64,000 bases of DNA from Pontibacillus sp. HMF3514 (GTDB lineage Bacteria; Bacillota; Bacilli; Bacillales; BH030062). The stretch is taken from contig NZ_CP047393.1 in assembly GCF_009858175.1 (NCBI RefSeq), forward strand, positions 2,666,001 to 2,730,000, given 5' to 3'. The notes under the pieces were generated by a model. The model did no database searches. It saw nothing but the letters and a program-made list of their open reading frames with translations, and was not told the origin of the DNA. Of the stretch, positions 1-13,025 are shown piece after piece. The position numbers and the translations under genes are program-made. The first letter of the stretch is position 1. Every line of letters starts with the position of its first letter.

Positions 1-1026
1 AATAAACCGACATCCAACATTTTCAGAATTTAGTGCATCATGAAATAGCTTAGCGTCATTAGGTTTTTCAAATTGAATACCAAATGCTATACCAACATGC
101 CCTTCATCATCAATACACTTCTGAAACTTTATATTAGGTAACTTTTCAGCTACCGCATCCATAATGTATTTACGACTTTTTTTAGTTGCATTGATTATAC
201 GATCAAGTTTCTTCCATTGTTCCACAAGGATTGCTCCTGTAATTTCACTCATACGATAATTTTGGCCAGCGAACGAACTTTGAATATCGCTTGACTCTAT
301 GTCAAACTTGTTTTTAATACCAGCTCGGAAACTTCCCTGATCATGGTAACGTACAATTCGTTCGAAGAGATTTTTATCCTTTGTTGCGATTGCGCCACCT
401 TCACCAGCAGTTAGTATTTTATTCATCTGGAAACTAAATACTCCAATATCCCCAATCGTGCCTTGGTGTCTTCCTTTATATTTAATTCCACACGACTGGG
501 CAACATCCTCAATCACATAAATGTTATGTTTTTTGGCAAATGCCATAATGGAATCCATGTCGTTTGGATTCCCTGATAAAGGTACTGCAATAATGGCTTT
601 CACCTCATCATCCATAACCCTCTCTAAATCATTCGGATCTAAATTCAAACTAGCATCAACATCTACAAATACCGGGACAGCATTAGCTGATATGACAGCC
701 CCAGCTGTAGCAATGAATGTAACACTCGGTACGATTACTTTATCTCCATAACCAACTCCTAATGCTTTAAGAGCGATGACGATGGCAGCAGTACATGAGG
801 ATACACCTAACACATAAGGTACTTCTAAATCTTTTGCCATCATTTCCTCAAGTTGATCGACAGTGTGCTGAACGTTCTCACCATAAAAACGAAAGGGGGA
901 TTGAGCCTTAATGACTTTATTAACCGCTTCTACTTCTTCTTCCCCCATCATCGTTGCCCCAGGGTAATCAGGTGGTAAAGGGTGATTGCGGACAGGGCAT
1001 CCACCTTCTATTGCTAACTTTCCCAT
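1..1026 (-). CDS. DegT/DnrJ/EryC1/StrS-family PLP aminotransferase (3' end outside window)
   Basis: The reading frame starts at ATG 1026 with an AAGGGG ribosome site and stays open to the window edge, so the C-terminus is missing. The N-terminus (MGKLAIEGGCPVR) and the order of motifs fit the DegT fold-type I sugar aminotransferases. An EDVAQSCG segment carries the Asp that binds the pyridine nitrogen of PLP. It is followed by SFQMNKILTAGEGG, whose Lys should form the Schiff base. The family transaminates keto-sugars or keto-cyclitols such as scyllo-inosose, usually with Glu or Gln as amino donor. It is the last visible gene of a leftward run containing four sugar dehydrogenases, which could supply its keto substrate. 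The exact substrate cannot be read from the sequence. Confidence 0.88.
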   Translation of the reverse strand, partial: MGKLAIEGGCPVRNHPLPPDYPGATMMGEEEVEAVNKVIKAQSPFRFYGENVQHTVDQLEEMMAKDLEVPYVLGVSSCTAAIVIALKALGVGYGDKVIVPSVTFIATAGAVISANAVPVFVDVDASLNLDPNDLERVMDDEVKAIIAVPLSGNPNDMDSIMAFAKKHNIYVIEDVAQSCGIKYKGRHQGTIGDIGVFSFQMNKILTAGEGGAIATKDKNLFERIVRYHDQGSFRAGIKNKFDIESSDIQSSFAGQNYRMSEITGAILVEQWKKLDRIINATKKSRKYIMDAVAEKLPNIKFQKCIDDEGHVGIAFGIQFEKPNDAKLFHDALNSENVGCRFI

Positions 1027-1207
1027 TGTTTCATCCCCTTAATGTTGATTAATATGGCTTTTACAAACCTATTTTATCTAGGATCTACACAACTAAAAGT
1101 ATATAACTCCTTCTCGACATTTCCACTCAATTCCTGCAATCAGCTAAATAGATTTTATTCTTTTATAGAATAGTTAATCCTACTAAGAATTCAATGGTGT
1201 AAGATAT

Positions 1208-3133
1208 TTAGATACCAGGCCAATATTCTAAAGAAGGCACATGCCATATACCACCTGGGTGCCCCAAGTGTTTATGAACATTTTCAGCAATACGATAACT
1301 ACTTGGTCGATCACCTACAAAAATTATTTGGGTTGGCCACAACATTCCCGCTAAATTTGGCAAGTCTGTATAACGTAAACTATTAATAATCTCTAAATGT
1401 TCAGTTGCTGGAACATCCTGAGATGCGGGTGGGTCTTTCAAAATAACTGCCGAAACGTTTGTGTCTAATAAAGCTGCATATAATACAGGTATGGTCATTT
1501 CACCTTCACCTGCAAGTATTATTTTATTCGAATCTACAGAATCCATAGACCTTAGCACTTCTATTCCTCGAAGTGTATCCCAAACTCTTATGGATGCAAT
1601 TGTTCTCCCTGTCAAAGCTGCAGAACGTCGAATATACCAATCTATGTCTGAACCCCACGATGATTTCCCTGTTCCTCTTGGATCGATCCTTGCTCTTAAG
1701 TAAGTAGCATTTAATCCGTCTAGCATTGAAGTAGTTTTGTTCAAATGATCTTTTGTACGTAGGTACATAACAGTAGGAGCTGGGGTGTTGCTATTCTTTT
1801 TATTTCCTTGTAGTTCCCCACAAATCCTAAAATCTTTTTCGGATTGGTAATCAAATTTCTGTACCCAATCCAAATTCCTTTCATAATATCTCTGTCTGAT
1901 ATTCATATCTAAATGAATACTTTCTTGAGGGAACGTTGCAAAACTCTCCTTTTGCAAATGATTAATTAGATTTAGTTTATTCATTTGATGTTCTTCACTA
2001 GATTGAATGTCTTCCTTTATCCGATTAGGAATAAACCAATCCTGTACCGTAGTTGATTCATCATTCGCTGGTGTCCTCTTGTTAAATACAAGTAAATCTT
2101 GTTCGTCTTCACGCCATTCGTCGACATCCGTTACTTTATCATCATGCTGTTCACCATTTCCCATCAAATGTTTTATAAACCAATGAAAAATTTCCTTTCG
2201 TGAATCAGAACTATAGGAGTGACGGCCTTCAAATTCAAAGAAGTGTAATAACTCTCCTTTACTTAATCTTTCATAAAAAGCCTTCAATCGTTTGCTTACA
2301 TATCTTACAGAGTTGATTTGAAAATGTTTATCCTCGTCTGGCGATACAATTAACACAGGACGTGGTGCCATCAGAGCAGATATCTCAATTAGGGATCTCC
2401 CATATGGGTTTGAAGGAAACACACAATCACAATGTGTATTAATTGTCTCTTCTCTTATATGTGATTCAATTGTTCCTGTACCGCAAGATGAAGCAATGAC
2501 CTTCACTCGATCATCTGCACAACCTGTCCACCAACTTATTGAACCTCCCCCCGATTGTCCAGTCATCCCAATTCTTTCAGAGTCTACTTGCTCCATTTCT
2601 GTTAATAAATCAATACCACGGATGGCATTCCAAACTTCAATTGCAGCTGGTGTATAGCCCTTACTAATCCAGTTATACATCCCGTGTGAATACGTGCCAT
2701 GATGAAGCCCCTTAACTTCTCCAAATTGAACCGTATCGATAATAAGTGTAATAAACCCAAGTTGGGCAAACTTTCTCCCATGTTCTTGATAATTTACTTT
2801 TTGTGTTCCAGAATGACCACATAAATAGACAATGGCAGGAACTGGACTATTTATACGATTAGGAATGTATAAGTTTGCAGCAACAAATAGATTCGGTAAG
2901 CTTTCAAAATATATCTTTTCTACACGGTATTCTTCCCGTTTTATTATCCCTGTTCTGTGCATATTTAGTGGCGTCCTCGGTTTATGTAAGTACGTATCTA
3001 TCCCAAGCATTTTGTGGTACTCTTTCTGCCTCTCTTTACGCCACTTAAACAAATCATCCTCTGTTTGAATATTTGGTAAGGGTTTTCTTGTAATCTCTTC
3101 TGCTTTTTGTATTAGATAATCAGAAATGTGCAT
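1208..3133 (-). CDS. Two-domain alpha/beta-hydrolase (acetyl-xylan-esterase/dienelactone-hydrolase-like), second domain degenerate
   Basis: A protein of about 641 aa with no signal peptide. The first hydrolase domain (roughly residues 80-325) has the nucleophile elbow GQSGGG (Ser about 195), an Asp in SPDED (about 267) and a His in EGRHS (about 306), so a complete Ser-Asp-His triad is visible. The second half repeats the same fold signature: VWNAIRGIDLL (169-179) recurs as VWDTLRGIEVL (518-528), but the elbow reads AGEGEM with Gly where Ser should be. The C-terminal copy is therefore probably not catalytic and may shape substrate binding. GTG 3136 and ATG 3133 are both possible starts after AGGTGGG; ATG is preferred. 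The gene lies 14 bp downstream of the dehydrogenase at 3151. A role in removing acyl or ester groups from a sugar is inference. Confidence 0.8.
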   Translation of the reverse strand: MHISDYLIQKAEEITRKPLPNIQTEDDLFKWRKERQKEYHKMLGIDTYLHKPRTPLNMHRTGIIKREEYRVEKIYFESLPNLFVAANLYIPNRINSPVPAIVYLCGHSGTQKVNYQEHGRKFAQLGFITLIIDTVQFGEVKGLHHGTYSHGMYNWISKGYTPAAIEVWNAIRGIDLLTEMEQVDSERIGMTGQSGGGSISWWTGCADDRVKVIASSCGTGTIESHIREETINTHCDCVFPSNPYGRSLIEISALMAPRPVLIVSPDEDKHFQINSVRYVSKRLKAFYERLSKGELLHFFEFEGRHSYSSDSRKEIFHWFIKHLMGNGEQHDDKVTDVDEWREDEQDLLVFNKRTPANDESTTVQDWFIPNRIKEDIQSSEEHQMNKLNLINHLQKESFATFPQESIHLDMNIRQRYYERNLDWVQKFDYQSEKDFRICGELQGNKKNSNTPAPTVMYLRTKDHLNKTTSMLDGLNATYLRARIDPRGTGKSSWGSDIDWYIRRSAALTGRTIASIRVWDTLRGIEVLRSMDSVDSNKIILAGEGEMTIPVLYAALLDTNVSAVILKDPPASQDVPATEHLEIINSLRYTDLPNLAGMLWPTQIIFVGDRPSSYRIAENVHKHLGHPGGIWHVPSLEYWPGI

Positions 3134-3150
3134 CACTTACACCCACCTAA

Positions 3151-4173
3151 CTAATTAAAATGGAGCTCCTTATTCTCCCTTGATGATTCGTAAGTTCCCA
3201 GAATAAGGTCGAGTGAATGCTTCCCGTCTTCCCCTGTGATCATTGGTTTTCGACCTTCTCTAACTGCTTGAGCCATATCTTGAATTTGAATTCGATGTCC
3301 ATCAGGAAAAACACTAAAGCTCTCAAATTCAGGAAGTTCGATATCTTGACCATTCATTTTCAAAGTCGTTATTTCATCATTTATGTAAATTAAGGTTCCA
3401 TTCTCCCCTAAAATCTCAATGCGCACGGTTTCATTAATATGGGCTGTTGTAGTCATTTCCATCACACCTATTGCACCATGCTCAAACTCTAGCAATGAAG
3501 CAGCAGTGTCTTCTACCTCTATGTCTCTTAAGAGTGTTCTCGATTTTCCGTATAAAGAAGAAACAGGTCCTGCCAACCACTGTAATAAATCAATGGTGTG
3601 AATCCCTTGATTCATCATTGCTCCTCCCCCATCATATTCCCAGGTTCCTCTCCAACCCGCACTATCGTAGTACTCCTGACTTCTGTAAATTTTCATATAA
3701 GCTGAACATAAACTTAATTTGCCTAATTTTCCTGACTGAATTAATTCACGAGCATAGTTCGCTTGTGGTGACATTCTTCTCGGGAAAACAGTAGCTAAAT
3801 GAACATGGTTTTCTTTACAAACTTGTATCATGTCTTCTACATCTTTAATTTGAATCGCCATTGGCTTTTCAACAAATACATGCTTTCCAGCCTTAGCAGC
3901 TAACTTTGTTTGTTCAGGATGGAGAGAGCTTGGTGTACATATATTGACGACATCTATGTTGTCTTGTTTTAATAATTCTTCTAAGCTACTATAAGCGTTA
4001 ACCCCATACAATTTCCCTTTTTCTTCTGCAAGTGTAGGTTTGATATCACATACTGCTACTAACTCTGCCTCGGGTACATGTTCAATTGATTTTAGGTGTG
4101 CTTCAGATATCGTTCCACAACCAACAACCGCAAATCTCGTTTTATTTTTCATATCCTGTTTCTTCCCTTCCAT
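3151..4173 (-). CDS. Gfo/Idh/MocA-family NAD(P)-dependent sugar dehydrogenase (A)
   Basis: A 340-aa oxidoreductase with an N-terminal Rossmann fold (VVGCGTIS, near residue 17) and a C-terminal Gfo/Idh alpha/beta domain. The diagnostic EKP motif (VFVEKPMAI) holds the catalytic Lys, and NQGIHTIDLLQWL carries the Asp/His pair of the active site. This is the most canonical of the four dehydrogenases in the cluster and resembles nucleotide-sugar or inositol dehydrogenases. ATG 4173 overlaps the stop of the upstream CapA-like gene (TAATG), suggesting coupled translation. An internal ATG at 4152 with nearby GGAAGGG and AGGA could be the true start. Members oxidise a ring hydroxyl to a ketone, which would feed the aminotransferase two genes downstream. 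Substrate unknown. Confidence 0.88.
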   Translation of the reverse strand: MEGKKQDMKNKTRFAVVGCGTISEAHLKSIEHVPEAELVAVCDIKPTLAEEKGKLYGVNAYSSLEELLKQDNIDVVNICTPSSLHPEQTKLAAKAGKHVFVEKPMAIQIKDVEDMIQVCKENHVHLATVFPRRMSPQANYARELIQSGKLGKLSLCSAYMKIYRSQEYYDSAGWRGTWEYDGGGAMMNQGIHTIDLLQWLAGPVSSLYGKSRTLLRDIEVEDTAASLLEFEHGAIGVMEMTTTAHINETVRIEILGENGTLIYINDEITTLKMNGQDIELPEFESFSVFPDGHRIQIQDMAQAVREGRKPMITGEDGKHSLDLILGTYESSRENKELHFN

Positions 4174-5384
4174 TAATAAATGATTGGCTTTTTCCAGTAT
4201 TGAACTAAATCCTTAGCCCAATTTGGTGCATTTCCCGTTTCACCTGTTGTTGCTCTCTTCAACGCACGTAAATAAAGTTCTCGATGTGCAGGCGTGAAAA
4301 ATATATTATGAAGCCAAGCCGCTCCTTTAATATCTTTGGTTTGCAAGAGATTTGCATTTTCTTTAAGTGCTTCAGCTATGGCATCTAATCCTACATCATC
4401 TACTACTGCATCCCAAACATTTGTTACTTTAGTATCGTCGCTTAAAATAGTAGACAGATATTGCAAATCTTTAAGAAACTGAGATTTTTCCTCACCTTTC
4501 ATTAATTCCAGTCCATACTGTTTAATTAAATATGGGGTTACGACCAATTGTTTAATTTTTCTATCTGATAGATCTAGATGTACCATGTATCCAGCATGAT
4601 GAAAATACTGTTCACTTTTCTGCCAAAACACGAAATTCCCTTGACTATATACAATTGGTACTCCATGATACATTTCTATTCCTTGTGGTACATGAGGGTG
4701 GTGACTGATCACAGCGTCGGCTCCTGCTTTAGCTAATTTTCTTAGATCCTTCGTTACATATAAGGGTGGAGAAGGAATATGCTCTCGACCTCCATGAAAA
4801 ATAACAAGAACAAGATCTGTCTTTTTCTTTAGTTCTCTTATTTGTTCAGTAGTTTTCTGTATATGTAAACCATGAACACCTGGTCCCCCATCTACAGAGC
4901 GGCATTCTTCTCCTTCTGCACAGTTTATAATGCCAACTGTTGTATCGTTAACATTCGTAATGAAAGGCTTTGCTGCCTCTTCACCTGATAATCCTGCCCC
5001 TGTAACTTGAATACCTGCGTTTTTTAATAAGTTGATCGTCTCGCTCAATCCTTCCCTTCCATAATCCATCGTATGATTATTGGCTAGGCACCCAATATGG
5101 AAAGGAACATGAGTTAAAGCTTGTATTGTTTTTTCACTACCTCTTAAATTTGGGCCACCTTTATGGATCGGCTCACCACGATTACCTAACGTAGTTTCAA
5201 CATTAACTATTGATAAATCACTAGTTTGAATAACAGGTAACAAATCACCGTATATACGAGTAGGATCATTTTCCATAATATATTCATATTGATCTCGTGG
5301 TGCCCAGTCTGAACATATCGTGATTCTAGTCGAGTCCTGTGACTCTACATTGTTTACTTTAATAATCCCTTTTTCCCATCTCAA
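4173..5384 (-). CDS. CapA-family (poly-gamma-glutamate capsule synthesis protein-like) metallophosphatase-fold protein
   Basis: A 403-aa protein with the CapA/PGA_cap signature: NVETTLG, LANNHTMD, FHGGREH, SHHPHVPQG and YSQGNFVF, the metal-binding motifs of the calcineurin-like fold. Classical CapA proteins in capsule operons have an N-terminal membrane segment. This one starts directly with MRWEKGIIKVNN and has neither a signal peptide nor a transmembrane helix, so it should be cytoplasmic. No capB or capC partners are present. The start is TTG 5384 with GAGGGG five bases upstream; no ATG is available before about residue 38. It sits inside a sugar dehydrogenase operon, so a phosphatase-like or ligase-accessory role on a sugar is more likely than capsule synthesis, but that is inference. 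Confidence 0.82.
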   Translation of the reverse strand: MRWEKGIIKVNNVESQDSTRITICSDWAPRDQYEYIMENDPTRIYGDLLPVIQTSDLSIVNVETTLGNRGEPIHKGGPNLRGSEKTIQALTHVPFHIGCLANNHTMDYGREGLSETINLLKNAGIQVTGAGLSGEEAAKPFITNVNDTTVGIINCAEGEECRSVDGGPGVHGLHIQKTTEQIRELKKKTDLVLVIFHGGREHIPSPPLYVTKDLRKLAKAGADAVISHHPHVPQGIEMYHGVPIVYSQGNFVFWQKSEQYFHHAGYMVHLDLSDRKIKQLVVTPYLIKQYGLELMKGEEKSQFLKDLQYLSTILSDDTKVTNVWDAVVDDVGLDAIAEALKENANLLQTKDIKGAAWLHNIFFTPAHRELYLRALKRATTGETGNAPNWAKDLVQYWKKPIIY

Positions 5385-5426
5385 TGTAACCCCTCATATT
5401 CCCAACAGTATTTACTAACTCCCCTG

Positions 5427-6425
5427 TTAATGGAACCGGTTCATGACTTTTACCTTTTCATCTGCCTCAATCGTGTGTTGAGTAGCCGTTAGAATATCAT
5501 CATGACTCAGTATAGATGACTCCCCTGCTAATCGATTTAAGAAATCCTCAGTAATGTTTAAGAAAGGTGAGTGTAGATTAACTTGTTTAAACTCCTCTTC
5601 ATTCGTCACTTTAAGCAGCAACTCTTCTTTACTAGCAAGAGGATCACCCTCTAGACGAAGTTCAACTATCCCCTTTGTTCCTGTTACAAATATCCGACAA
5701 TCTCCCCAGGTCCAACTTTTTTCTGGATTAAACCAATCCGCATATAAGTGGGCCAAAATGTTATCTTCCATTTGAATATGAAGAGATGAGGAATCATAAA
5801 AATCAGGATACTCTGGTAAAATATTTTTTGCCATATACCCATGAGCATCCAATACTTCTTTGCCTGTTAACCATCTCAATAAATCAAAATCGTGAATAAA
5901 TAAATCAATCACAATACCACCACATTGTTCTTTCGAAAAATGCCATAAAGGCCTTTTTTCAGGTGTTAATCGATGTGGCTTTCTCATTGAAATGTTAATA
6001 ACATCACCTAAATCTCCTTGATCTATCATTTCTTTTAACGTAAAGATAGAAGATCGAAATCTTTCAGTTAATAACATACCAACTTGAATATTTCCTCTTT
6101 TTATTACATCTTTTAACCTTTCTAACCCAACTCGATTTGTAGCAGCTGGTTTATCAAGCATCACATGCTTCCCATACTCTTCACACAATTCAATGACATC
6201 AATTTTTTTGTTGTTAATTTCAGCACAGCCAACAATTTCTATCGATTCTTCTAGTGCTTCTTCCATATCATTTAATAGCTTCACATCGTACTGTTGAGAT
6301 ACTGACTCGGCTAACTTTACGTTTTGTTTTTCATAAATGCCAACACATTCATGACCTAAATTAATCATTTCTTTTATGAAAATCCCTATATGTCCGTGTT
6401 GACATCCTATTATCGAAAATCTCAC
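5427..6425 (-). CDS. Gfo/Idh/MocA-family oxidoreductase (B)
   Basis: A 332-aa protein that starts at GTG 6425 with AAAGGAGTGA upstream. The dinucleotide-binding loop is atypical (IIGCQHGHIG rather than GxGxxG), but the later family motifs are present: VMLDKPAATN with the catalytic Lys and CGGIVIDLFIHDFDLLRWL with His and Asp. The Glu of the usual EKP motif is replaced by Asp, as in several subfamilies. It lies 42 bp upstream of the CapA-like gene and 94 bp downstream of dehydrogenase C, in the same orientation, so co-transcription is likely. It is a predicted sugar or cyclitol dehydrogenase; substrate unknown. Confidence 0.82.
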   Translation of the reverse strand: MRFSIIGCQHGHIGIFIKEMINLGHECVGIYEKQNVKLAESVSQQYDVKLLNDMEEALEESIEIVGCAEINNKKIDVIELCEEYGKHVMLDKPAATNRVGLERLKDVIKRGNIQVGMLLTERFRSSIFTLKEMIDQGDLGDVINISMRKPHRLTPEKRPLWHFSKEQCGGIVIDLFIHDFDLLRWLTGKEVLDAHGYMAKNILPEYPDFYDSSSLHIQMEDNILAHLYADWFNPEKSWTWGDCRIFVTGTKGIVELRLEGDPLASKEELLLKVTNEEEFKQVNLHSPFLNITEDFLNRLAGESSILSHDDILTATQHTIEADEKVKVMNRFH

Positions 6426-6519
6426 TTGGTCTCACTCCTTTTAAACGCATTCCTACAATCTCTTTAGTATTGAAAGCGGATTCAAAATTGTGTACAAAAT
6501 CCTCAAATTAGGTTCATCC

Positions 6520-7422
6520 TTATAACATAACGGTTTTTCCTGTTTCTCTACTTTCATTGGCCGCTTCAATAAAGCGGATAATTTCAATTGTTTCATTCGG
6601 AGAAATAGAAGCTTGCTTTTCTTTGAAAAACGTCATCACTTCCTCCATTAAACTAGCCGTGATAGGTTTTTCACATTCTCGAATATTGACAAAGTTTGAT
6701 GTCTTTTCACCATGAATGACTGCACCAAATTCTCGATTCCCTTTTCTGTTTCCTCTCACTGTTCCGATACGTCCATCCTTCCATACTCCAACTACATACT
6801 CATAATCCTCATTTGAGGTAGCTGTTACATGCTGACATCCTTGCCCCATGGTGAGATAAAGCATTTCAACAGAATGAATACCGTACCAATACAACCCAGC
6901 TTGCGTAGGTTCTAACGTTATTGGACCAAAACAATCAGCACCTATGATTGCTTCTCCTTGCTTTTCAGATAACATAACTTGTAAATTATCTAAATAACGT
7001 AAGGATGATGCGCTCATTAACGGAACTTCATACTCTTTCGCTAATTCAAACATTTTTTTTGCATGATCTGTACAAACAGCAAATGGTTTATCAATAAAAA
7101 CTGGCTTCTTATAAGAAACGATTTTCTCAAATTGCTCCAGATGAATTCTGCCATCTACTGTGGTAAGTAAGATAGCATCCGTTTGCTCAGCTACTTCTTC
7201 AATGGAATTTACAATTTTAATTCCATAGTTATTTTTTAGCGTTTCTGTAATCCCCTCAACCCTTCCATAGCTACGCTCAAAATCAGGAGATCCACCTGGA
7301 TACCCAATTACGACCTCTCCACCATGAACATAGTAATCTTGTTTAGAATCATTCAATAAGCTAACAAATCCCTCACAGTGAGATGTATCTAAACCGATCA
7401 TTCCAATTTTTAATTTTGACAT
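6520..7422 (-). CDS. Gfo/Idh/MocA-family oxidoreductase (C), short form
   Basis: At 300 aa it is shorter than typical Gfo/Idh proteins (330-400 aa). The N-terminal loop reads GMIGLDTSHCEGF, in which GLDTSH replaces the glycine-rich nucleotide-binding motif; I associate this variant with a poorly studied branch of the family. VFIDKPFAV supplies the catalytic Lys region and WYGIHSVEMLY a candidate His. The start ATG 7422 has an excellent AAGGAGGAG site. Given the altered loop it could be a dehydrogenase of altered cofactor preference or a non-redox relative. It belongs to the leftward cluster operon. Confidence 0.78.
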   Translation of the reverse strand: MSKLKIGMIGLDTSHCEGFVSLLNDSKQDYYVHGGEVVIGYPGGSPDFERSYGRVEGITETLKNNYGIKIVNSIEEVAEQTDAILLTTVDGRIHLEQFEKIVSYKKPVFIDKPFAVCTDHAKKMFELAKEYEVPLMSASSLRYLDNLQVMLSEKQGEAIIGADCFGPITLEPTQAGLYWYGIHSVEMLYLTMGQGCQHVTATSNEDYEYVVGVWKDGRIGTVRGNRKGNREFGAVIHGEKTSNFVNIRECEKPITASLMEEVMTFFKEKQASISPNETIEIIRFIEAANESRETGKTVML

Positions 7423-7557
7423 TTTCTTCTCCTCCTTTATTTTTGAATTACCCTGCTATATAAGTGGTTCTTTTAGGAATGCATGTTAAGATTCTAATAA
7501 ACAATTTTTCTATTCCTCCATAGTGGTATTAGCGGACAGAGGATATATATAAAGAAA

Positions 7558-7588
7558 GTAGGGCTAAAGGTAAAATACCACTCCCTAC
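7558..7588 (-). terminator. Weak hairpin downstream of dehydrogenase D
   Basis: Read on the minus strand, GTAGGG and CCCTAC pair around a long loop and are followed by TTTCTTT. It could partly end transcription of the 7620-8912 gene before the next gene. The stem is short and the U-tract imperfect, so this is only a candidate. Confidence 0.3.
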
Positions 7589-7619
7589 ACCTAAGCATCA
7601 CCTGATCTTTCCAATATAC

Positions 7620-8912
7620 TTATGAAAAAACACTCAGGGGTTCAATTGTTTTTGTTGATTGTTCTAACCTTGCTTGGTCAGCTCTGAAACCAATTAAATG
7701 GCCATAAATTGAATCTTCTAATGTTGTTGTGGATAAAGAAGGTTTTCTACCTTGCAAAACCTTCACAAAATCTTCAACCAATAATAAATCTCCCCCTCCA
7801 TGAGAATCCTTAACAACATCAACAACTATACGTTCTTCTATATATTCATGCCCCTTCTTTGCATTTGGACGTCTCAAGAGATAATACCCATCCTCCATGA
7901 CTCCATATATTTCACCTTTTGTCCCAATCAAATGGATTGTTCTACAAGGTTTAGAAGCACCGCCTACCATACTATGTGTCGCTGTAGAACCATCCTCGAA
8001 CTCTATTAATACGGATTGATGATCGACAACATCATTATCACAATGCCATACACATCTACCGTATGGATTATCTGTTCGTAAAGATTCTAACTTCTGTTCT
8101 ACGGTAGGGTTGGATATATGTTCAATAGATTTCCATGCATAAAAGGACCAAAGACCTTGCTCAATATAGTTTTTCTTTGATGAGTAAGGACAGGTTGATT
8201 CAATTTCACAGTCAACTAAACAACGCTTCCCCGCCCCATGAGGAGCCTTCTCTGGTCTGAAATGCATCAAGCTTCCAAAACTCGATACCTTTACTGGAGC
8301 TACTCCACCTTTCATCCAAGTTATAATGTCTAAATCATGACAGGATTTCGCCATTAACATCGTAGAATGACAATTCTTAAGACTATTCCATTTCCCACGA
8401 ACATAAGATACAGCCATATGGTGGTAACTAACATTTTCTTCAGTTTGAATGCTGATGATATCACCTATCTCATCATTAGCTACTCTCTTTTTAATGTTCG
8501 AATAAAAAGGTGAATGTCGTAACACATGACACACCATAACCTTACGACCATATTTTTTCGCTGTATTTAGAAGACGGTTTAACTGTTTCTCATTCGTACC
8601 AATTGGTTTTTCGAGTAGCAGGTCATAACCTGCTCTTAGGATAGGAAGAGAGGTTTTAATATGAATGTCATCCATTGTACCGTTAATGACTGCATCAGCT
8701 ATAGGATTTTCTTTTGCCAGTAACTCTTCTATACCCTTAAAACAATGTTCTTCTGGAATGTCATGCTCTGCTGCTGCATTAGACCTTCGTTTATCATCTG
8801 GCTCAACGACTCCAACAATTTTAAAATCCTGTGGATGCTGTAAGGCATATGATGCATAAATTAAACTCCTATGACCTGCCCCTACAATGATTGCTGTTAT
8901 CAGTTTGTTCAT
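7620..8912 (-). CDS. Gfo/Idh/MocA-family oxidoreductase (D) with cysteine-rich insertion
   Basis: A 430-aa protein, the largest dehydrogenase of the cluster and the first gene of the leftward run. It has IIVGAGHRSLIY in the Rossmann domain, LLLEKPIGTN with the catalytic Lys, and LMAKSCHDLDIITWM with Lys, Cys, His and Asp near the active site. It then carries an insertion with several Cys (CLVDCEIESTCPYS, later GRCVWHCDNDVVDHQ), which marks a Gfo subfamily I remember as common in Paenibacillus-type sugar clusters; those cysteines could bind a metal. ATG 8912 follows AAGGGGGG at about 11 bases. The 271-bp gap to the divergent SIS gene is the probable shared control region. Substrate unknown. 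Confidence 0.83.
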   Translation of the reverse strand: MNKLITAIIVGAGHRSLIYASYALQHPQDFKIVGVVEPDDKRRSNAAAEHDIPEEHCFKGIEELLAKENPIADAVINGTMDDIHIKTSLPILRAGYDLLLEKPIGTNEKQLNRLLNTAKKYGRKVMVCHVLRHSPFYSNIKKRVANDEIGDIISIQTEENVSYHHMAVSYVRGKWNSLKNCHSTMLMAKSCHDLDIITWMKGGVAPVKVSSFGSLMHFRPEKAPHGAGKRCLVDCEIESTCPYSSKKNYIEQGLWSFYAWKSIEHISNPTVEQKLESLRTDNPYGRCVWHCDNDVVDHQSVLIEFEDGSTATHSMVGGASKPCRTIHLIGTKGEIYGVMEDGYYLLRRPNAKKGHEYIEERIVVDVVKDSHGGGDLLLVEDFVKVLQGRKPSLSTTTLEDSIYGHLIGFRADQARLEQSTKTIEPLSVFS

Positions 8913-9122
8913 TTATGTTCATACCCCCCTTACAAGAAGTGGATAAACAGTAATTTAAGTTAAATATTATTCATTACTTAATTAAAGTTTATGAAAGGTG
9001 TTATATATAGACAACGTCCTTTTTGTGTCTTTAAATGCGGCGAAAGCAACCTTCCTCATTAGCTAGCGTATCAATGTCCGAAAAGGGTGATTATTTCGAA
9101 AATAGATTGATGTTTCTAATCA

Positions 9123-9151
9123 TTAAGTGATATCTTTTAAACAGTTATACT
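9123..9151 (+). promoter_or_regulatory. Candidate sigma-A promoter of the SIS-domain operon
   Basis: TTAAGT at 9123-9128 and TATACT at 9146-9151 are 17 bp apart, and a strong AGGAGG site at 9170-9175 leads to ATG 9184. The -10 box matches 5 of 6 consensus bases and the -35 only 3 of 6, so an activator may be needed. I found no convincing catabolite (cre) site in the 8913-9183 divergent region. Confidence 0.45.
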
Positions 9152-9183
9152 GACGCATTTTACAATATTAGGAGGTACTAAAA

Positions 9184-9942
9184 ATGAGTGAAACCGTAAT
9201 GACTCAATATTTCCATAAGATTGTGAAGCATTTAGAAAAACTCCATGAGGAAGAAGTAGAAAATGTTCAAAAAGCGGCACTGATGGTTGCTGAACAAGTG
9301 AAAGAAGACAAAATTGTATATGCCTACGGCCCAGGAGGTCATTCAAATTTAGGCTCCCAGGAAATCTTTTTTCGAGCGGGAGGTCTTATGCATTTAGGAG
9401 CTATTTTAGATGAAGGGACTCTATTAAGTAATGGCGCTCTTCGATCAATGGCAATAGAGAGAACCCCTGGTTATGGGAACATTGTCATTGAAGATAACCA
9501 ATTACAAAAAGGTGATTTATTAATCTTAATTAACTCCTATGGTATTAACACTGCACTTATTGATGCAGCATTAGAAGCAAAAAAACGAGGTGTTAAACTA
9601 ATTGGAGTTACTTCTGTCCAACACGCAGAACAAACACCACTTGATCATGTAGCTAGACATCCATCTAAGAAAAACCTTCATGACTTAGTTGATGTGGTAC
9701 TAGATTCTAAGGTTGAAGTTGGAGATGCTGTTGTGGAGATTGAGAATTTAGATCAAAAGGTATCTGCAGTTTCTACATTTGCAAATGCTTTCTTATTAAA
9801 TTCACTCGTAGCTGAAACAGTCCAACTATTAGTAAAGGAAGGAATAACACCACCTATTTGGATGAGCGGAAATGCTGCTGGAGGAGATGAACAGAATAAT
9901 CAATTCATTGACCGTTTTAAAGGGAGAATAAAGTCACTATGA
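9184..9942 (+). CDS. SIS-domain sugar isomerase-like protein (UPF0309 type)
   Basis: A 252-aa soluble protein with a sugar-isomerase (SIS) fold. After an N-terminal helix, IVYAYGPGGHSNLGSQEIFFRAGG forms the phosphosugar-binding start of the domain, DLLILINSYGINTALIDAA the second strand-turn-helix, and KLIGVTSVQH the third. The usual Ser-rich loop of the SIS second strand reads NSYGIN, as in the UPF0309 group. The start ATG 9184 has AGGAGG at 8 bases. It is the first gene of a rightward trio diverging from the dehydrogenase run. SIS proteins isomerise or bind phosphosugars, or regulate transcription when fused to an HTH domain; no HTH domain is present, so a catalytic or sensor role is likelier. 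Confidence 0.85.
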   Translation: MSETVMTQYFHKIVKHLEKLHEEEVENVQKAALMVAEQVKEDKIVYAYGPGGHSNLGSQEIFFRAGGLMHLGAILDEGTLLSNGALRSMAIERTPGYGNIVIEDNQLQKGDLLILINSYGINTALIDAALEAKKRGVKLIGVTSVQHAEQTPLDHVARHPSKKNLHDLVDVVLDSKVEVGDAVVEIENLDQKVSAVSTFANAFLLNSLVAETVQLLVKEGITPPIWMSGNAAGGDEQNNQFIDRFKGRIKSL

Positions 9943-9988
9943 TTCACCTTTTATCCATTTCTATAAATCTTAAAGAAGGTGAATGCTC

Positions 9989-11293
9989 ATGACATATGCG
10001 GGTACTTCAAAAACATGTATTAATCCCACATTTCATTGTGAAATGGCAGGATTTATTGCTAGAGAAGGTTATTATGAAGGAATTCATGATGATTTATGGA
10101 TGAAATCAGTAGTTCTCCAAGAGGATGACTCTAAACTAATATTACTTAGCTTAGATATAATTGGGCTTGAAGGTATAACAATTAATAAAATTAAAGATTC
10201 ATTGACACATCACTTCGGAGTAGATTCAGATTCTGTTATGATCTCTACAACACACACACATGCTGGCCCGGCCACACTAGAAAACGCAAACCTGGGTTAT
10301 GTTAGCCAAGAATATATAAACTATATTGTTAAAAAAGCTACTGAATGTGTGAATTTAGCACTACTGGATTTAGAAGAAGTTGAATTGAGGTATGGCAAAG
10401 GAATTTGTAGAGAAGTTGGTAAAAACCGAAGAGAAGTCACTGGAATGACAGATCCAGAGGTGTTAGTCCTTTCTGTTTATAAAGCGAATCATAATGAGTT
10501 AAAAACCGTGGTTGTAAATTATGCCTGTCATCCAACTGTGTTAGGACCAGATAACGTTCAGTTATCTGCGGACTTCCCTTATTACCTCTATCAAGCTATC
10601 GAACGAATTTATGAAGACCCTAATGTTCTATTTATAAATGGAGCAGCAGGGAATATTAATGTTGGCCATCATGCACATGATAGTATAAATGGGAAGTCAT
10701 TTAATAAACGAACATTTACCGAAGCTAAACGTCATGGATACACGTTAGCTGGTGAAGTAGTAAAAGTGATTGAACAGTCGGAAAGCATTCATGACTTTTC
10801 CATTTTATACAAACAAATGAAGATGAGCATAACATTTACTGTAAATGATATGGTACAATCCATAAACAATGAGTTAAAATCACTGAAACATATCGATAAA
10901 AACAAATTAAAACTAGGACAACAAAAAATGATTCAGTTAAAGGAGAAGTGGAGTTCCATTTGGTTAAACAACACAAATGAAGATCATCAAATCCATTACT
11001 CCCTCTCTGTAGGACGAATCGGTCCCATCCTTTTTGTAACTTTGCCTGGAGAATTCTTTGTGGAATTAGGCTTGTTGGTTAAACAAGCCTTCCCTCAACA
11101 CCCTGTTCTCATTTTTGGTTATACAAACGGTAGTTTAGGATACGTAGCAGATCAATCATCCTATATACACGGTGGTTATGAAATTGAGGAGGCATATCAA
11201 GCATACGGATTTCCACTCCCTATTCCTATTGGCACTGGTGAAGCTATAATAAAAAATGCTGTATCCGTACTTAAAACTATTATACGTGATTAA
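9989..11293 (+). CDS. Neutral/alkaline ceramidase N-terminal-domain-like amidohydrolase
   Basis: Matches the neutral ceramidase family (zinc amidases that cleave N-acyl bonds) over its catalytic domain. TTHTHAGP (about 87-94) and NYACHPTVLG (177-186) carry the zinc-ligand histidines. At about 435 aa it lacks the C-terminal immunoglobulin-like domain of true ceramidases (650 aa or more), and it has no signal peptide, so it should act in the cytoplasm. The nucleophile serine of ceramidases (AGNLSPN type) is replaced: the aligned text is AGNINVG, with Asn about 224. The substrate is probably not ceramide; an N-acyl sugar or polyol is plausible from context. ATG 9989 is preferred to ATG 9983 because AAAGAAGGTGA lies 9 bases upstream of it but only 3 from the other. 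Confidence 0.8.
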   Translation: MTYAGTSKTCINPTFHCEMAGFIAREGYYEGIHDDLWMKSVVLQEDDSKLILLSLDIIGLEGITINKIKDSLTHHFGVDSDSVMISTTHTHAGPATLENANLGYVSQEYINYIVKKATECVNLALLDLEEVELRYGKGICREVGKNRREVTGMTDPEVLVLSVYKANHNELKTVVVNYACHPTVLGPDNVQLSADFPYYLYQAIERIYEDPNVLFINGAAGNINVGHHAHDSINGKSFNKRTFTEAKRHGYTLAGEVVKVIEQSESIHDFSILYKQMKMSITFTVNDMVQSINNELKSLKHIDKNKLKLGQQKMIQLKEKWSSIWLNNTNEDHQIHYSLSVGRIGPILFVTLPGEFFVELGLLVKQAFPQHPVLIFGYTNGSLGYVADQSSYIHGGYEIEEAYQAYGFPLPIPIGTGEAIIKNAVSVLKTIIRD

Positions 11294-11322
11294 AAGGGCT
11301 TGAGGGATTAAGCTCTTTTTTT
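11292..11322 (+). terminator. Rho-independent terminator after the ceramidase-like gene
   Basis: AAAAGGGCTT and AAGCTCTTTT form a 10-bp stem (one G-U pair) with an 8-base loop, ending in a run of seven T. It lies between the ceramidase-like gene and the CBM9-like gene, so the latter may be partly attenuated or have its own promoter. Confidence 0.7.
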
Positions 11323-11342
11323 GATACAAGGAGGAGGATGTT

Positions 11343-11954
11343 TTGAAGAAAGAATATGCCTTGAAGTATGTTCATCATTATAATGAAAAGTTGTTAAACT
11401 CTTTAGAGAAATTAACTATAAACGATTTTCCTTGGAATGAACAAAGTGGGCCAGTAACAGAGGTAAGACTATGCTATACATGTTCTCACCTTCACATTCA
11501 CTTTACAACCTATGAAACAAAACCTAGATCCACATATACCCAGCACAATGATCCTGTATATAAAGATAGTTGTGTCGAATTCTTCATAAAACCAAAACCA
11601 TCTGAAGATGATCGTTATGTGAACATTGAGGTGAATTCGCTTGGAACTTGTTTGATCGGTATGGGGATAAGCAGAACACAGAGAACAAGGTTAAATCAAG
11701 AAATGTGTGAAAGTATTAGCATAACGCCTCAACTCGAACCTGAATGTTGGAAAATTGATATAACGATTCCATTCTCATTTTTTGAACAGTATTTTAGAGA
11801 TCTGAAAATAGAAAAGGGAGCACAAATGGAAGGGAATTTTTATAAGTGTGGTGATGAAACAAAGAATCCGCATTTTGGATGTTGGAATAGAATTGAAAAT
11901 AAAAATCCAGACTTTCATTTACCATCATACTTTGGAGTATTGCATTTCAATTAA
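11343..11954 (+). CDS. Carbohydrate-binding family 9-like protein
   Basis: A 203-aa protein with the beta-sandwich pattern of CBM9-like domains: an early FPWNEQSGPVTEVRL strand, then LHIHFTTYE, an acidic DSCVEFFIKP segment, YVNIEVNSLGT, WKIDITIPFSFF, a GNFYKCGDETKNPHFGCW stretch and a closing PSYFGVLHF. In related proteins this fold binds reducing ends of sugars. It lacks a signal peptide and any attached enzyme, so it would act in the cytoplasm as a sugar-binding or accessory protein. The start is TTG 11343, chosen because AAGGAGGAGG lies directly upstream; the nearby ATG 11338 runs into TGA after two codons. It follows a terminator and is the last gene of the accessory cluster. Confidence 0.78.
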   Translation: MKKEYALKYVHHYNEKLLNSLEKLTINDFPWNEQSGPVTEVRLCYTCSHLHIHFTTYETKPRSTYTQHNDPVYKDSCVEFFIKPKPSEDDRYVNIEVNSLGTCLIGMGISRTQRTRLNQEMCESISITPQLEPECWKIDITIPFSFFEQYFRDLKIEKGAQMEGNFYKCGDETKNPHFGCWNRIENKNPDFHLPSYFGVLHFN

Positions 11955-12058: not shown

Positions 12059-12997
12059 TTAAGGTTTACGAGCAATGATTGCGGTCCAGTCTTCCATTTG
12101 GTTGGTTTCTACAATTTCAAAACCAGCCTCTTCTAAATTAGCCTTAACTTCATTTCGTTTATTCTGAATAATGCCTGATGTAATAAAATGTCCACCTGGT
12201 TTAAGTAAACGGAAAGCATCGTCTGTAAATTGAACAATTACCTCTGCTAGAATGTTGGACACAATTAGATCAGCTTCAATTTCAACGTTATTTAACAAAT
12301 TATTTTGCTTAGAGTGAATTTGTTGATCAGCTTTGTTTAGCTTGGCGTTAATGGTTGTACTTTTCACAGCAACGTCATCTAAATCATAGGCATATACTTC
12401 TTTTGCGCCTAGTAAGACAGAAGCTATACTTAGCACTCCTGAACCTGCACCAACATCGATCACTGTATCATTCTCTTGTAAAATTTGTTCAATCGCTTGA
12501 ATACTTAAAACAGTTGTTGGATGAGTACCCGTTCCAAATGCCATTCCTGGATCTAACTCAAGAATGATCTCGTCACTGGAGACAGGTTCGTACTCTTCCC
12601 ATGTTGGTGTAATTGTAATACGCTCAGAAATTTTGACTGGCTTATAATACTTTTTCCAAGCTGTTGCCCAATCTTCTTCATTAACCTCACTGATTGTGAT
12701 GTTATTGTGACCCAAGTCAATATCATGGATTAACAAGTTATTAATAGCTTGCTTAATTTCATCAACCGTTTCCCCTAAAAAACTATTAACAGGAAGGTAT
12801 GCTTTTACATACACACCTTCCGTTGGATAATCTTCGGGATTTAAATCGTACATCTCACCCATGAAGGTATCTCGTTCTTTTACAAGGTCTTGTGGGTCTT
12901 CAATTACCACTCCACTTGCACCAGCTTCATGAAGGATATTTGAAATGGGTTCAATCGCTTCATTCGTTGTATGAATACACATTTCAGACCATTTCAC
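12059..12997 (-). CDS. prmA: Ribosomal protein L11 methyltransferase
   Basis: About 312 aa. It transfers methyl groups from S-adenosylmethionine to ribosomal protein L11. The N-terminal L11-recognition domain (WSEMCIHTTNEAIEPISN) is followed by a Rossmann methyltransferase domain with the SAM motif VIDVGAGSGVLSIA, then LDPGMAFGTGTHPTT and LIVSNILAEV, all classic PrmA sequences. GTG 12997 is preferred because it gives the family's usual beginning (xKWSE); the frame extends to TTG 13006. It lies 28 bp downstream of dnaJ at the end of the heat-shock operon, as in B. subtilis. The genes that follow prmA there (rsmE, mtaB) are not here; a terminator and the accessory cluster come instead. Confidence 0.96.
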   Translation of the reverse strand: MKWSEMCIHTTNEAIEPISNILHEAGASGVVIEDPQDLVKERDTFMGEMYDLNPEDYPTEGVYVKAYLPVNSFLGETVDEIKQAINNLLIHDIDLGHNNITISEVNEEDWATAWKKYYKPVKISERITITPTWEEYEPVSSDEIILELDPGMAFGTGTHPTTVLSIQAIEQILQENDTVIDVGAGSGVLSIASVLLGAKEVYAYDLDDVAVKSTTINAKLNKADQQIHSKQNNLLNNVEIEADLIVSNILAEVIVQFTDDAFRLLKPGGHFITSGIIQNKRNEVKANLEEAGFEIVETNQMEDWTAIIARKP

Positions 12998-13025
12998 TAT
13001 GATCAACTCACTTTACTCTAATTTC

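What the first reader, a model, noticed from the sequence alone, without database searches (positions are those of the whole stretch)
1..11954. Unrecognised amino-sugar/cyclitol gene cluster
Seven leftward genes (DegT aminotransferase, two-domain hydrolase, CapA-like protein, four distinct Gfo/Idh/MocA dehydrogenases) face three rightward genes (SIS protein, ceramidase-like amidase, CBM9-like protein). Oxidation then transamination is known logic from NtdC/NtdA kanosamine synthesis and inosamine pathways (established). Four dehydrogenases with different active-site variants suggest several ring positions or epimerisation by oxidation and reduction (inference). No transporter, kinase or regulator is visible, and no protein of the set has a signal peptide, so the substrate is probably handled inside the cell.
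Basis: partly seen in the sequence, partly recalled or inferred. Interest (0 to 1): 0.75.

Follow-up and report, generated by a model that had tools for sequence, protein, structure and literature searches.

The report
Predicted amino-uronic-acid catabolism island
The ten genes are the right-hand end of a 33 kb inserted block that most likely lets this bacterium eat acidic amino sugars such as those of bacterial surface polysaccharides, by removing the amino group without phosphorylating the sugar and feeding the rest into the ordinary uronic-acid pathway.

Summary
The ten genes are real, but the window edge cut the system: it is a 26-gene block between rsmE and prmA, which are adjacent in 7 of 7 congeners. 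Left of the window lie an importer, a regulator, a sugar kinase, and a tight operon: NagB-like, NagA-like, UxuA, UxuB, KDG kinase, KDPG aldolase. Best reading: NagA-like deacetylates and NagB-like deaminates an unphosphorylated 2-amino-2-deoxyuronate to fructuronate, which UxuB/UxuA/kinase/aldolase degrade. Support: no UxaC in the genome; UxuA only in the island; NagB-like and SIS lack phosphate-site residues kept by the genome's separate canonical copies; hexuronate genes in 11 of 58 NagB-like neighbourhoods against 0 of 104 controls; the 3151 dehydrogenase is nearest to 3q2k (recalled as WlbA). Against: weak genome-wide UxuA enrichment (8 of 31 vs 48 of 366), 47 of 58 NagB-like loci without hexuronate genes, several downstream enzymes under model cut-offs. 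Roles of SIS, ceramidase-like, DegT and the dehydrogenases are inferred, perhaps removal of a 3-acetamido group. No activity is shown. The cyclitol/kanosamine reading has little support, though one cyclitol aminotransferase is DegT's second-best solved relative.

The parts
1..1026 (-). DegT/DnrJ/EryC1 aminotransferase, 3' part cut by window edge (full gene 429 aa, genome C1:2665737-2667026)
   Evidence: PF01041 250.6 bits; full frame
1208..3136 (-). 642-aa alpha/beta hydrolase; first half AXE1-like with GQSGGGS nucleophile motif (read by eye)
   Evidence: PF05448 43.8 bits
3151..4173 (-). GFO3151: Gfo/Idh/MocA dehydrogenase; best solved relatives 3q2k/3q2i (recalled: WlbA, UDP-GlcNAcA 3-dehydrogenase)
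   Evidence: 6e-64 and 3.8e-61, next 7.5e-34
4173..5384 (-). CapA/PGA_cap family protein, function unknown
   Evidence: PF09587 199.4 bits; weak MslH match
5427..6425 (-). GFO5427: Gfo/Idh/MocA dehydrogenase
6520..7422 (-). GFO6520: divergent 300-aa Gfo/Idh/MocA protein; relatives near NagB-like/NagA-like in L180, L182 (55-58%) and L199 (40%)
7620..8912 (-). GFO7620: 430-aa Gfo/Idh/MocA dehydrogenase of the second module (with epimerase-like + DHDPS-family pair in Streptomyces)
9184..9942 (+). SIS (UPF0309/PRK02947) protein with NSYGIN in place of the SxSG phosphate-binding motif
9983..11293 (+). Ceramidase-like predicted zinc amidase; H91, H93, H183, E357, Y399 invariant in two alignments
11343..11954 (+). 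CBM9_2 protein
   Evidence: PF16011 148.2 bits
11955..12058 (.). right junction of the inserted block with prmA (12059-13006); left junction lies outside the window at genome C1:2645174
   Evidence: prmA directly beside rsmE in 7 of 7 congeners

Best explanation
The block is an imported catabolic island for N-acetylated amino-uronic acids (2-acetamido-2-deoxy-gluco- or mannuronate residues, probably with a further 3-substituent) taken up as small glycans by the ABC importer. Core, best supported: (1) NagA-like removes the 2-N-acetyl group from the unphosphorylated sugar acid; (2) NagB-like deaminates and isomerises 2-amino-2-deoxyuronate to D-fructuronate + ammonia; (3) UxuB (SDR type) reduces this to D-mannonate; (4) UxuA dehydrates it to KDG; (5) a KDG kinase and KDPG aldolase give pyruvate + glyceraldehyde-3-P. 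Shown: genes, operon, residues, neighbourhoods. Inferred: every reaction of this island. Periphery, weaker: the ceramidase-like zinc amidase, DegT and GFO3151 (WlbA-like) undo a 3-acetamido group by de-N-acylation, transamination to a 3-keto sugar and reduction, i.e. Wbp/Wlb chemistry backwards; or GFO3151 makes a 3-keto glycoside for cleavage by elimination, as its more distant relative 8tdi (glucuronide-3-dehydrogenase) suggests. SIS, a relative of NagS without phosphate serines, opens or eliminates at C2/C3; the hydrolase, CapA, CBM9 and MGH1-like proteins strip and cut the incoming glycan. The 7620 dehydrogenase with the epimerase-like/DHDPS-family pair is a second module of unknown substrate.
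For: Operon NagB-NagA-UxuA-UxuB-KdgK-KDPG aldolase with gaps of -44 to +30 bp. UxuA 521.6 bits, UxuB 439.3 vs cut-off 281, KDPG aldolase 288.8 vs 238. UxaC absent from the genome and UxuA only in the island, so fructuronate has no usual source. The genome has a separate canonical nagA-nagB-regulator-SIS operon (nagB 304.7 vs 236.9, nagA 369.1 vs 225.65), while the island copies miss those cut-offs (136.7; 222.4). None of 58 NagB-like proteins has the TG[GS][TS] loop or the Arg of xNxR[FY]F; 20 of 20 canonical NagB examined have a TG[GSD][TS] loop and that Arg. 24 of 24 SIS matches in NagB-like loci read NAYGIN, whereas SIS in the four loci with PTS genes reads SNSG[RI]N. Hexuronate genes lie in 11 of 58 NagB-like neighbourhoods vs 0 of 104 controls; counting the island there are three non-orthologous routes: SDR UxuB + UxuA (island), mannitol-DH-family reductase + UxuA, and UxaE/UxaB with a galactarate/altronate dehydratase. 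The label needs 9 changes on the NagB tree. UxaC absent in 4 of 4 chosen genomes with such local genes, present in 4 of 4 chosen without. Two loci have TRAP transporter genes (L198 by eye; L192). GFO3151 is nearest to 3q2k.
Against: 47 of 58 NagB-like neighbourhoods show no hexuronate gene. Genome-wide UxuA: 8 of 31 NagB-like genomes vs 48 of 366 others, p = 0.06 (0.17 without two partial hits), so the family as a whole need not make fructuronate. Against canonical NagB neighbourhoods alone: 11/58 vs 0/20, p = 0.057. The mannitol-DH-type reductases match fructuronate reductase best but all four scored lie under its cut-off of 603 (122 to 488 bits), one nearly equal with arabinitol dehydrogenase; the island KDG kinase is under its cut-off (205 vs 400) and also resembles fructokinase (145). 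L064 and L181 have only the SDR without UxuA. Spirosoma and Paenibacillus-like loci pair NagB-like with GH20-like hydrolases, suggesting neutral amino sugars. NagA-like keeps the Arg aligned with the canonical anion-binding Arg. Many NagB-like loci have a NagA nearer to the canonical one. L121 has an ABC importer and a SIS with SNSGRN, against the PTS/ABC split. DegT is nearer to 5k8b (194.7) and to 2-deoxy-scyllo-inosose aminotransferase (176.5) than to WbpE (110.0). The UxaA/UxaE queries were added after L179 and L207 were read.
Confidence: 0.6

Rival explanations
1. Two separate arms: the glycan contains HexNAc and a plain uronic acid; NagA/NagB-like process the hexosamine (perhaps phosphorylated by the PfkB-type kinase or by one elsewhere) and UxuB/UxuA/aldolase process the uronate.
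For: Both gene sets are present; GlcA-HexNAc repeats are common (general knowledge); 47 of 58 NagB-like loci lack hexuronate genes.
Against: No UxaC in the genome, so glucuronate could not reach fructuronate by the usual route; NagB-like and SIS lack phosphate-site residues; canonical NagB loci show no such pairing (0 of 20).
Confidence: 0.2
2. NagA/NagB-like act on unphosphorylated neutral GlcNAc/GlcN, giving fructose; the uronate genes serve another substrate.
For: GH20-like neighbours in Spirosoma and Paenibacillus-like loci; loss of phosphate-site residues; the island PfkB kinase also resembles fructokinase (144.8 bits).
Against: Recurrent hexuronate genes and two TRAP loci; the kinase scores higher as KDG kinase (205.3 bits).
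Confidence: 0.1
3. One reading: amino-sugar/cyclitol (kanosamine- or inosamine-like) oxidation-transamination pathway.
For: DegT and four Gfo/Idh/MocA proteins are present; the second-best solved DegT relative is 2-deoxy-scyllo-inosose aminotransferase, 176.5 bits; inositol 2-dehydrogenase is the best NCBIfam model for GFO3151, though far under cut-off.
Against: NtdA only 97.6 bits vs 194.7 for the best DegT relative; GFO3151 nearer 3q2k than inositol dehydrogenases (219.7 vs 120.8 bits); importer plus Uxu and aldolase genes show catabolism.
Confidence: 0.06
4. Polysaccharide biosynthesis cluster making 3-amino-uronates.
For: DegT + WlbA-like dehydrogenase, CapA-like protein.
Against: No glycosyltransferase, flippase or UDP-sugar 6-dehydrogenase among the island proteins scanned with Pfam or NCBIfam (24 of 26; the two permeases were not scanned); importer and degradation enzymes instead.
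Confidence: 0.03

Closest known systems
N-acetylglucosamine catabolism NagA/NagB (B. subtilis/E. coli type)
   Same: deacetylase then deaminating isomerase, homologous proteins, motifs FHMDEY and GIGENGHIAFN kept
   Different: phosphate loop and Arg missing in NagB-like, scores under the NCBIfam cut-offs, downstream genes are hexuronate genes
Uxu/Uxa hexuronate pathway (fructuronate/mannonate/KDG)
   Same: UxuB, UxuA, KDPG aldolase over cut-off and a KDG-kinase-like protein under it
   Different: no UxaC in the genome; entry point would be a deaminase
Wbp/Wlb synthesis of UDP-ManNAc3NAcA (P. aeruginosa, B. pertussis; PMC10622841, passages read)
   Same: C3-dehydrogenase relative (3q2k) and a DegT-family aminotransferase
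   Different: DegT is not nearest to WbpE (110.0 vs 194.7 bits); no nucleotide-sugar context; ceramidase-like amidase in place of an acetyltransferase; importer present
NagS GlcNAc-6-P dehydratase of Streptomyces (PMC12680351: abstract, passages and section 10 read)
   Same: SIS UPF0309 family, 9eol best solved relative at 5.1e-37
   Different: phosphate serines (S119, S121 in the paper) replaced by NSYGIN; the paper reports that three tested homologues outside the Streptomycetaceae (25.7-35.7% identity) had negligible or no such activity
Neutral ceramidase (2zws)
   Same: fold (Foldseek E 1e-25, TMq 0.72, rmsd 7.7, 19% identity), zinc-ligand-like residues
   Different: 436 vs 646 residues, no signal peptide seen by eye, 22 bits vs cut-off 1200

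Membership tests
GlcN-6-P deaminase NagB | NCBIfam TIGR00502 cut-off 236.9 | tested here: not met
   136.7 bits; own canonical copy 304.7
GlcN-6-P deaminase NagB | TGxTP loop and Arg of xNxRFF (phosphate site, recalled) | tested here: not met
   absent in island and in 58 of 58 relatives; one relative (L074) has Lys at the Arg position, 8 keep TG as TGASQ
GlcN-6-P deaminase NagB | catalytic DEY and GHIAFN motifs (roles recalled) | tested here: met
GlcNAc-6-P deacetylase NagA | NCBIfam TIGR00221 cut-off 225.65 | tested here: not met
   222.4 bits, just under
GlcNAc-6-P deacetylase NagA | anion-binding Arg (GREPG in canonical enzymes, role recalled) | tested here: met
   PRHPN aligns with GREPG/HREPG
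Uxu mannonate branch | UxuA and UxuB over cut-off | tested here: met
Uxu/Uxa hexuronate pathway | UxaC isomerase in the genome | tested here: not met
   0 matches; the control rings in 7 of 14 named genomes
KDG kinase | NCBIfam equivalog cut-off 400 (NF040938) | tested here: not met
   205.3 bits, best of several sugar kinases
KDPG aldolase | NCBIfam cut-off 238 (PRK06552) | tested here: met
   288.8 bits
PRK02947 SIS subfamily | NCBIfam cut-off 135 | tested here: met
   254.7 bits
NagS GlcNAc-6-P dehydratase | phosphate serines SxSG | tested here: not met
   NSYGIN
NagS GlcNAc-6-P dehydratase | dehydratase activity on GlcNAc-6-P | not testable with these tools
   needs an assay
Neutral ceramidase | fold and zinc site | tested here: met
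   the zinc-ligand assignment itself is recalled
Neutral ceramidase | NCBIfam NF041649 cut-off 1200 | tested here: not met
   22 bits
NtdA/NtdB/NtdC kanosamine pathway | NtdA as closest DegT relative | tested here: not met
   97.6 vs 194.7 bits
WlbA/WbpB UDP-GlcNAcA 3-dehydrogenase | closest solved relative | tested here: met
   3q2k at 219.7 bits, next kind 120.8; that 3q2k is WlbA is recalled
WlbA/WbpB UDP-GlcNAcA 3-dehydrogenase | acts on a UDP-sugar | not testable with these tools
   needs an assay
Wbp 3-aminotransferase WbpE | WbpE as closest DegT relative | tested here: not met
   110.0 vs 194.7 bits

The most novel reading that the evidence does not exclude
A widespread, kinase-free pathway for 2-amino- and 2,3-diamino-uronic acids of bacterial surface glycans: ceramidase-like amidase, DegT and a WlbA-like dehydrogenase run Wbp/Wlb biosynthesis backwards to remove the 3-acetamido group, NagA-like and NagB-like remove the 2-acetyl and 2-amino groups from the free sugar acid to give fructuronate or tagaturonate, and interchangeable Uxu/Uxa branches finish it. 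'Glucosamine-6-phosphate deaminases' of the AAAPSQ type would then be amino-uronate deaminases.
Probability: 0.25. Interest if true: 0.78.

Novelty: new variant of a known kind. Interest (0 to 1): 0.6.

Why it matters
Amino-uronic acids are common in O-antigens, capsules and teichuronic acids (general knowledge), yet the papers listed by my searches (one search listed 20 of 8,133 and 25 of 66) showed no route by which bacteria degrade them. The island gives a concrete gene set and a predicted entry enzyme, NagB-like, found at E <= 1e-45 in 32 of 398 sampled same-phylum genomes (phylum Bacillota is inferred) and also in Pseudomonadota, Bacteroidota and Chloroflexota loci, where plasmid records annotate it as glucosamine-6-phosphate deaminase or 6-phosphogluconolactonase. 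It also gives a one-tube test.

Tried and rejected
NagA lost its phosphate Arg: first guess in my idea note, rejected because PRHPN aligns with GREPG. NagS-type GlcNAc-6-P dehydration by SIS: rejected for lost phosphate serines and because the NagS paper tested distant homologues without activity. Universal pairing of NagB-like with UxuA: not supported genome-wide. A strict rule 'PTS import keeps, ABC import loses the SIS phosphate serines': broken by L121. Triple of 7620 dehydrogenase + SIS + ceramidase-like as a conserved unit: not found. An oxidative uronate route for the epimerase-like/DHDPS-family pair was considered; EPI338 has no NCBIfam match and none in Pfam at 0.001, so it stays open. 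Literature searches gave nothing decisive; two gave the NagS and Wbp papers.

Full report
1. Observation. The window is C1:2666001-2730000 of a 3.98 Mb single-contig genome. Reading left shows 22 consecutive leftward genes from GFO7620 to a KDPG aldolase, then three rightward genes (SIS, ceramidase-like, CBM9) at the right end and one rightward MGH1-like hydrolase gene at the left end: 26 genes, C1:2645497-2677954. In all 7 other genomes of the genus that are held, prmA lies next to rsmE; here the block separates them. At E <= 1e-20 only one of the 7 congeners has a relative of the ceramidase-like protein, at 27% identity. The block is therefore an insertion here or a loss in all the others; insertion is simpler.

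2. What the left part adds. An AraC-type regulator with membrane-like segments (HTH, segments by eye), a 445-aa protein without Pfam match at 0.001 that I guess to be a second regulator, SBP, two permeases (by eye and by tblastn to annotated permeases), DUF624, a 569-aa protein and an epimerase-like protein without family matches at 0.001, a DHDPS-family protein, then NagB-like, NagA-like, UxuA, UxuB, a KDG-kinase-like PfkB protein and KDPG aldolase with gaps of -44 to +30 bp.

3. Two sets of nag genes. The genome has a canonical nagA-nagB operon with a GntR-like gene (by eye) and a SIS gene at about C1:3.709 Mb, whose NagA and NagB pass the NCBIfam cut-offs. The island copies do not (NagB-like 136.7 vs 236.9; NagA-like 222.4 vs 225.65, just under). 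The island NagB-like protein has AAAPSQ where canonical enzymes have TG[GS][TS]P and no Arg where they have xNxR[FY]F. I compared 58 NagB-like relatives: the 14 of 80 ceramidase-like loci that hold one, 31 of the 32 non-own places (G310, with an internal stop, left out), and 13 of the 17 plasmid records. 49 read (A/G)(A/S)A(P/V)S(Q/A), 8 read TGASQ, 1 reads LGAAQ; none has the Arg (L074 has Lys). 20 canonical NagB, taken from the 49 places, all have TG[GSD][TS] and the Arg. That these residues bind phosphate is recalled; one search found no paper to check it.

4. SIS. The nearest solved proteins are 9eol (SCO4393 = NagS) and 3cvj. In NagS the phosphate is held by Ser54, Ser119 and Ser121 (PMC12680351, passage in section 13). 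The island SIS reads NSYGIN at the SxSG site; the own canonical-operon SIS reads STSGRN. In NagB-like loci 24 of 24 SIS matches read NAYGIN (two in L193; L063/L185 and L202/L271 are near-copies). Among 17 SIS matches in ceramidase-like loci without NagB-like, 5 read NAYGIN, 11 read SxSG and 1 is partial. The matches in L092, L094, L107 and L130, which hold mannose-family PTS genes (Pfam in L092 and L107; clustering for the others), all read SNSG. Most of the NAYGIN loci have ABC, SSF or TRAP genes or none in view. One exception: L121 has an ABC importer and SNSGRN. The trend says that the NagB-like pathway runs on unphosphorylated sugars.

5. Source of fructuronate. UxaC is absent from the genome and UxuA occurs only in the island. 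UxuA/UxuB thus need another supplier; the adjacent NagB-like enzyme would give exactly fructuronate if its substrate is a 2-amino-2-deoxyuronate.

6. Test in other genomes. A Nitratireductor plasmid has NagB-like, SIS, NagA-like, ceramidase-like, SBP, two permeases, an AGE-like gene (tblastn), UgpC, a mannitol-DH-family reductase and UxuA in a row; a second Nitratireductor is alike with UxuA. Agrobacterium and Ancylobacter plasmids have NagB-like with UxuA and a mannitol-DH-family reductase. A same-phylum genome (L198) has NagB-like with TRAP-like genes (by eye), such a reductase and UxuA. The four UxuA proteins scored pass their cut-off of 191 (493 to 537 bits); the four reductases match fructuronate reductase best but all below its cut-off of 603 (383.8, 122.0, 487.7 and 296.6 bits; in Agrobacterium arabinitol dehydrogenase is almost equal at 291.9). 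L179 has a galactarate/altronate dehydratase family gene, tagaturonate reductase UxaB (652 vs 359 bits), KduI, SIS (76% to the island), NagA-like (55%), NagB-like (62%), ceramidase-like, AGE-like, SSF, UxaE tagaturonate epimerase, a KDPG-aldolase homologue (43%) and a PfkB kinase. L192 (TRAP DctP, KduI, UxaB 688 vs 359, altronate-dehydratase-type) and L193 (SSF, UxaE, altronate-dehydratase-type) are similar. Ancylobacter also has such a dehydratase.

7. Counting. With fixed tblastn thresholds, UxuA, UxuB of either type, UxaA, UxaB or UxaE occur in 11 of 58 NagB-like neighbourhoods (L064, L074, L179, L181, L192, L193, L198, L202, L203, L207, L271; island left out) and 0 of 104 controls (20 canonical NagB, 66 ceramidase-like without NagB-like, 18 loci of 7620 homologues): p = 6e-6; 10 of 57 with one Nitratireductor dropped, p = 1.8e-5; against the 20 canonical loci alone p = 0.057. 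The UxaA/UxaB/UxaE queries came from L179 and L207, seen first; both were fetched for NagB-like alone. Contigs differ in length. L064 and L181 have only the SDR. On a tree of 60 NagB rows the label needs 9 changes (shuffled mean 11.2, 22 of 500 shuffles as low), so the link has arisen or been lost repeatedly.

8. Results against. Genome-wide, UxuA is in 8 of 31 NagB-like genomes and 48 of 366 others (p = 0.06; 7 of 31 vs 47 of 366, p = 0.17, without two partial hits; I take the two 398-genome samples to be the same, as their handles agree). UxaA/UxaB could not be searched genome-wide (cap). UxaC was looked for in eight genomes that I chose: absent in the four with local hexuronate genes, present in the four without; with the own genome 5 vs 4, p = 0.008. 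Two of the four without (G305, G425) have no UxuA either. Spirosoma and two Paenibacillus-like loci (same class) have NagB-like with GH20-like hydrolases and no hexuronate gene nearby. The family may thus include deaminases of neutral amino sugars.

9. Periphery. GFO3151 is far closer to 3q2k/3q2i than to any other solved dehydrogenase (219.7 and 210.5 vs 120.8 bits; a glucuronide-3-dehydrogenase, 8tdi, follows at 107.3). I recall 3q2k/3q2i as WlbA of B. pertussis and C. violaceum, which oxidise C3 of UDP-GlcNAcA; that pathway is described in PMC10622841 (passages). DegT, however, is nearer to 5k8b (194.7 bits) and to 2-deoxy-scyllo-inosose aminotransferase (176.5) than to WbpE (110.0) or NtdA (97.6). 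DegT and GFO3151 relatives stand next to each other in seven loci, in six of them directly beside the ceramidase-like gene (L059, L060, L062, L067, L068, L070) and in L064 a few genes away; in L067, L068 and L070 a GFO5427 relative follows. The ceramidase-like protein folds like neutral ceramidase (pLDDT 83.7; 2zws E 1e-25) with H91, H93, H183, E357 and Y399 invariant. A 3-N-deacylase, 3-aminotransferase and 3-ketoreductase acting on a 2,3-diamino-uronate fits this trio; it is inference. GFO6520 relatives sit near NagB-like/NagA-like in L180, L182 and, at 40%, Spirosoma. GFO7620 instead goes with the epimerase-like/DHDPS-family pair in Streptomyces, so the island joins at least two modules.

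10. Literature. The papers listed by searches (20 of 8,133; 25 of 66; 2; 3; 4) showed no degradation pathway for amino-uronic acids and no deaminase making fructuronate; I saw listings only. The library holds open-access papers, so this is no proof of absence.

11. Verdict. Ordinary enzyme families in a combination that predicts a new entry into uronate catabolism. Core reading 0.6. Novelty: new variant of a known kind.

Noticed in passing
L274:3289-10011 (Streptomyces plasmid), L276:8938-14739, L275:15384-20381; island genome C1:2654524-2656631: A conserved pair, epimerase-like protein without NCBIfam match (51% and 65% in two comparisons) + DHDPS-family protein (54-71%), recurs with an ABC importer and GFO7620-type or GFO6520-type dehydrogenases; function unknown.
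   Followed up: partly
own genome C1:about 3707950-3711340 (L139): The canonical nagA-nagB operon also carries a UPF0309-type SIS gene with phosphate serines kept.
   Followed up: partly
L092, L094, L107, L130: Mannose-family PTS genes in loci with ceramidase-like + SIS genes (NagA in three of them): a phosphorylated sister pathway with unknown substrate.
   Followed up: partly
window 4173-5384: CapA-family protein whose only NCBIfam match is the lasso peptide tryptophan epimerase MslH (77 bits, cut-off 700).
   Followed up: no
L010:4787-6496: 569-aa protein with no Pfam or NCBIfam match at 0.001 and no plasmid relative at 1e-20.
   Followed up: no
L064:11520-16650 and L181:4536-6970: SDR UxuB-like gene near a 6PGD-family gene without UxuA, beside NagB-like: possibly a fourth downstream route (6PGD in L064 read by eye).
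   Followed up: no
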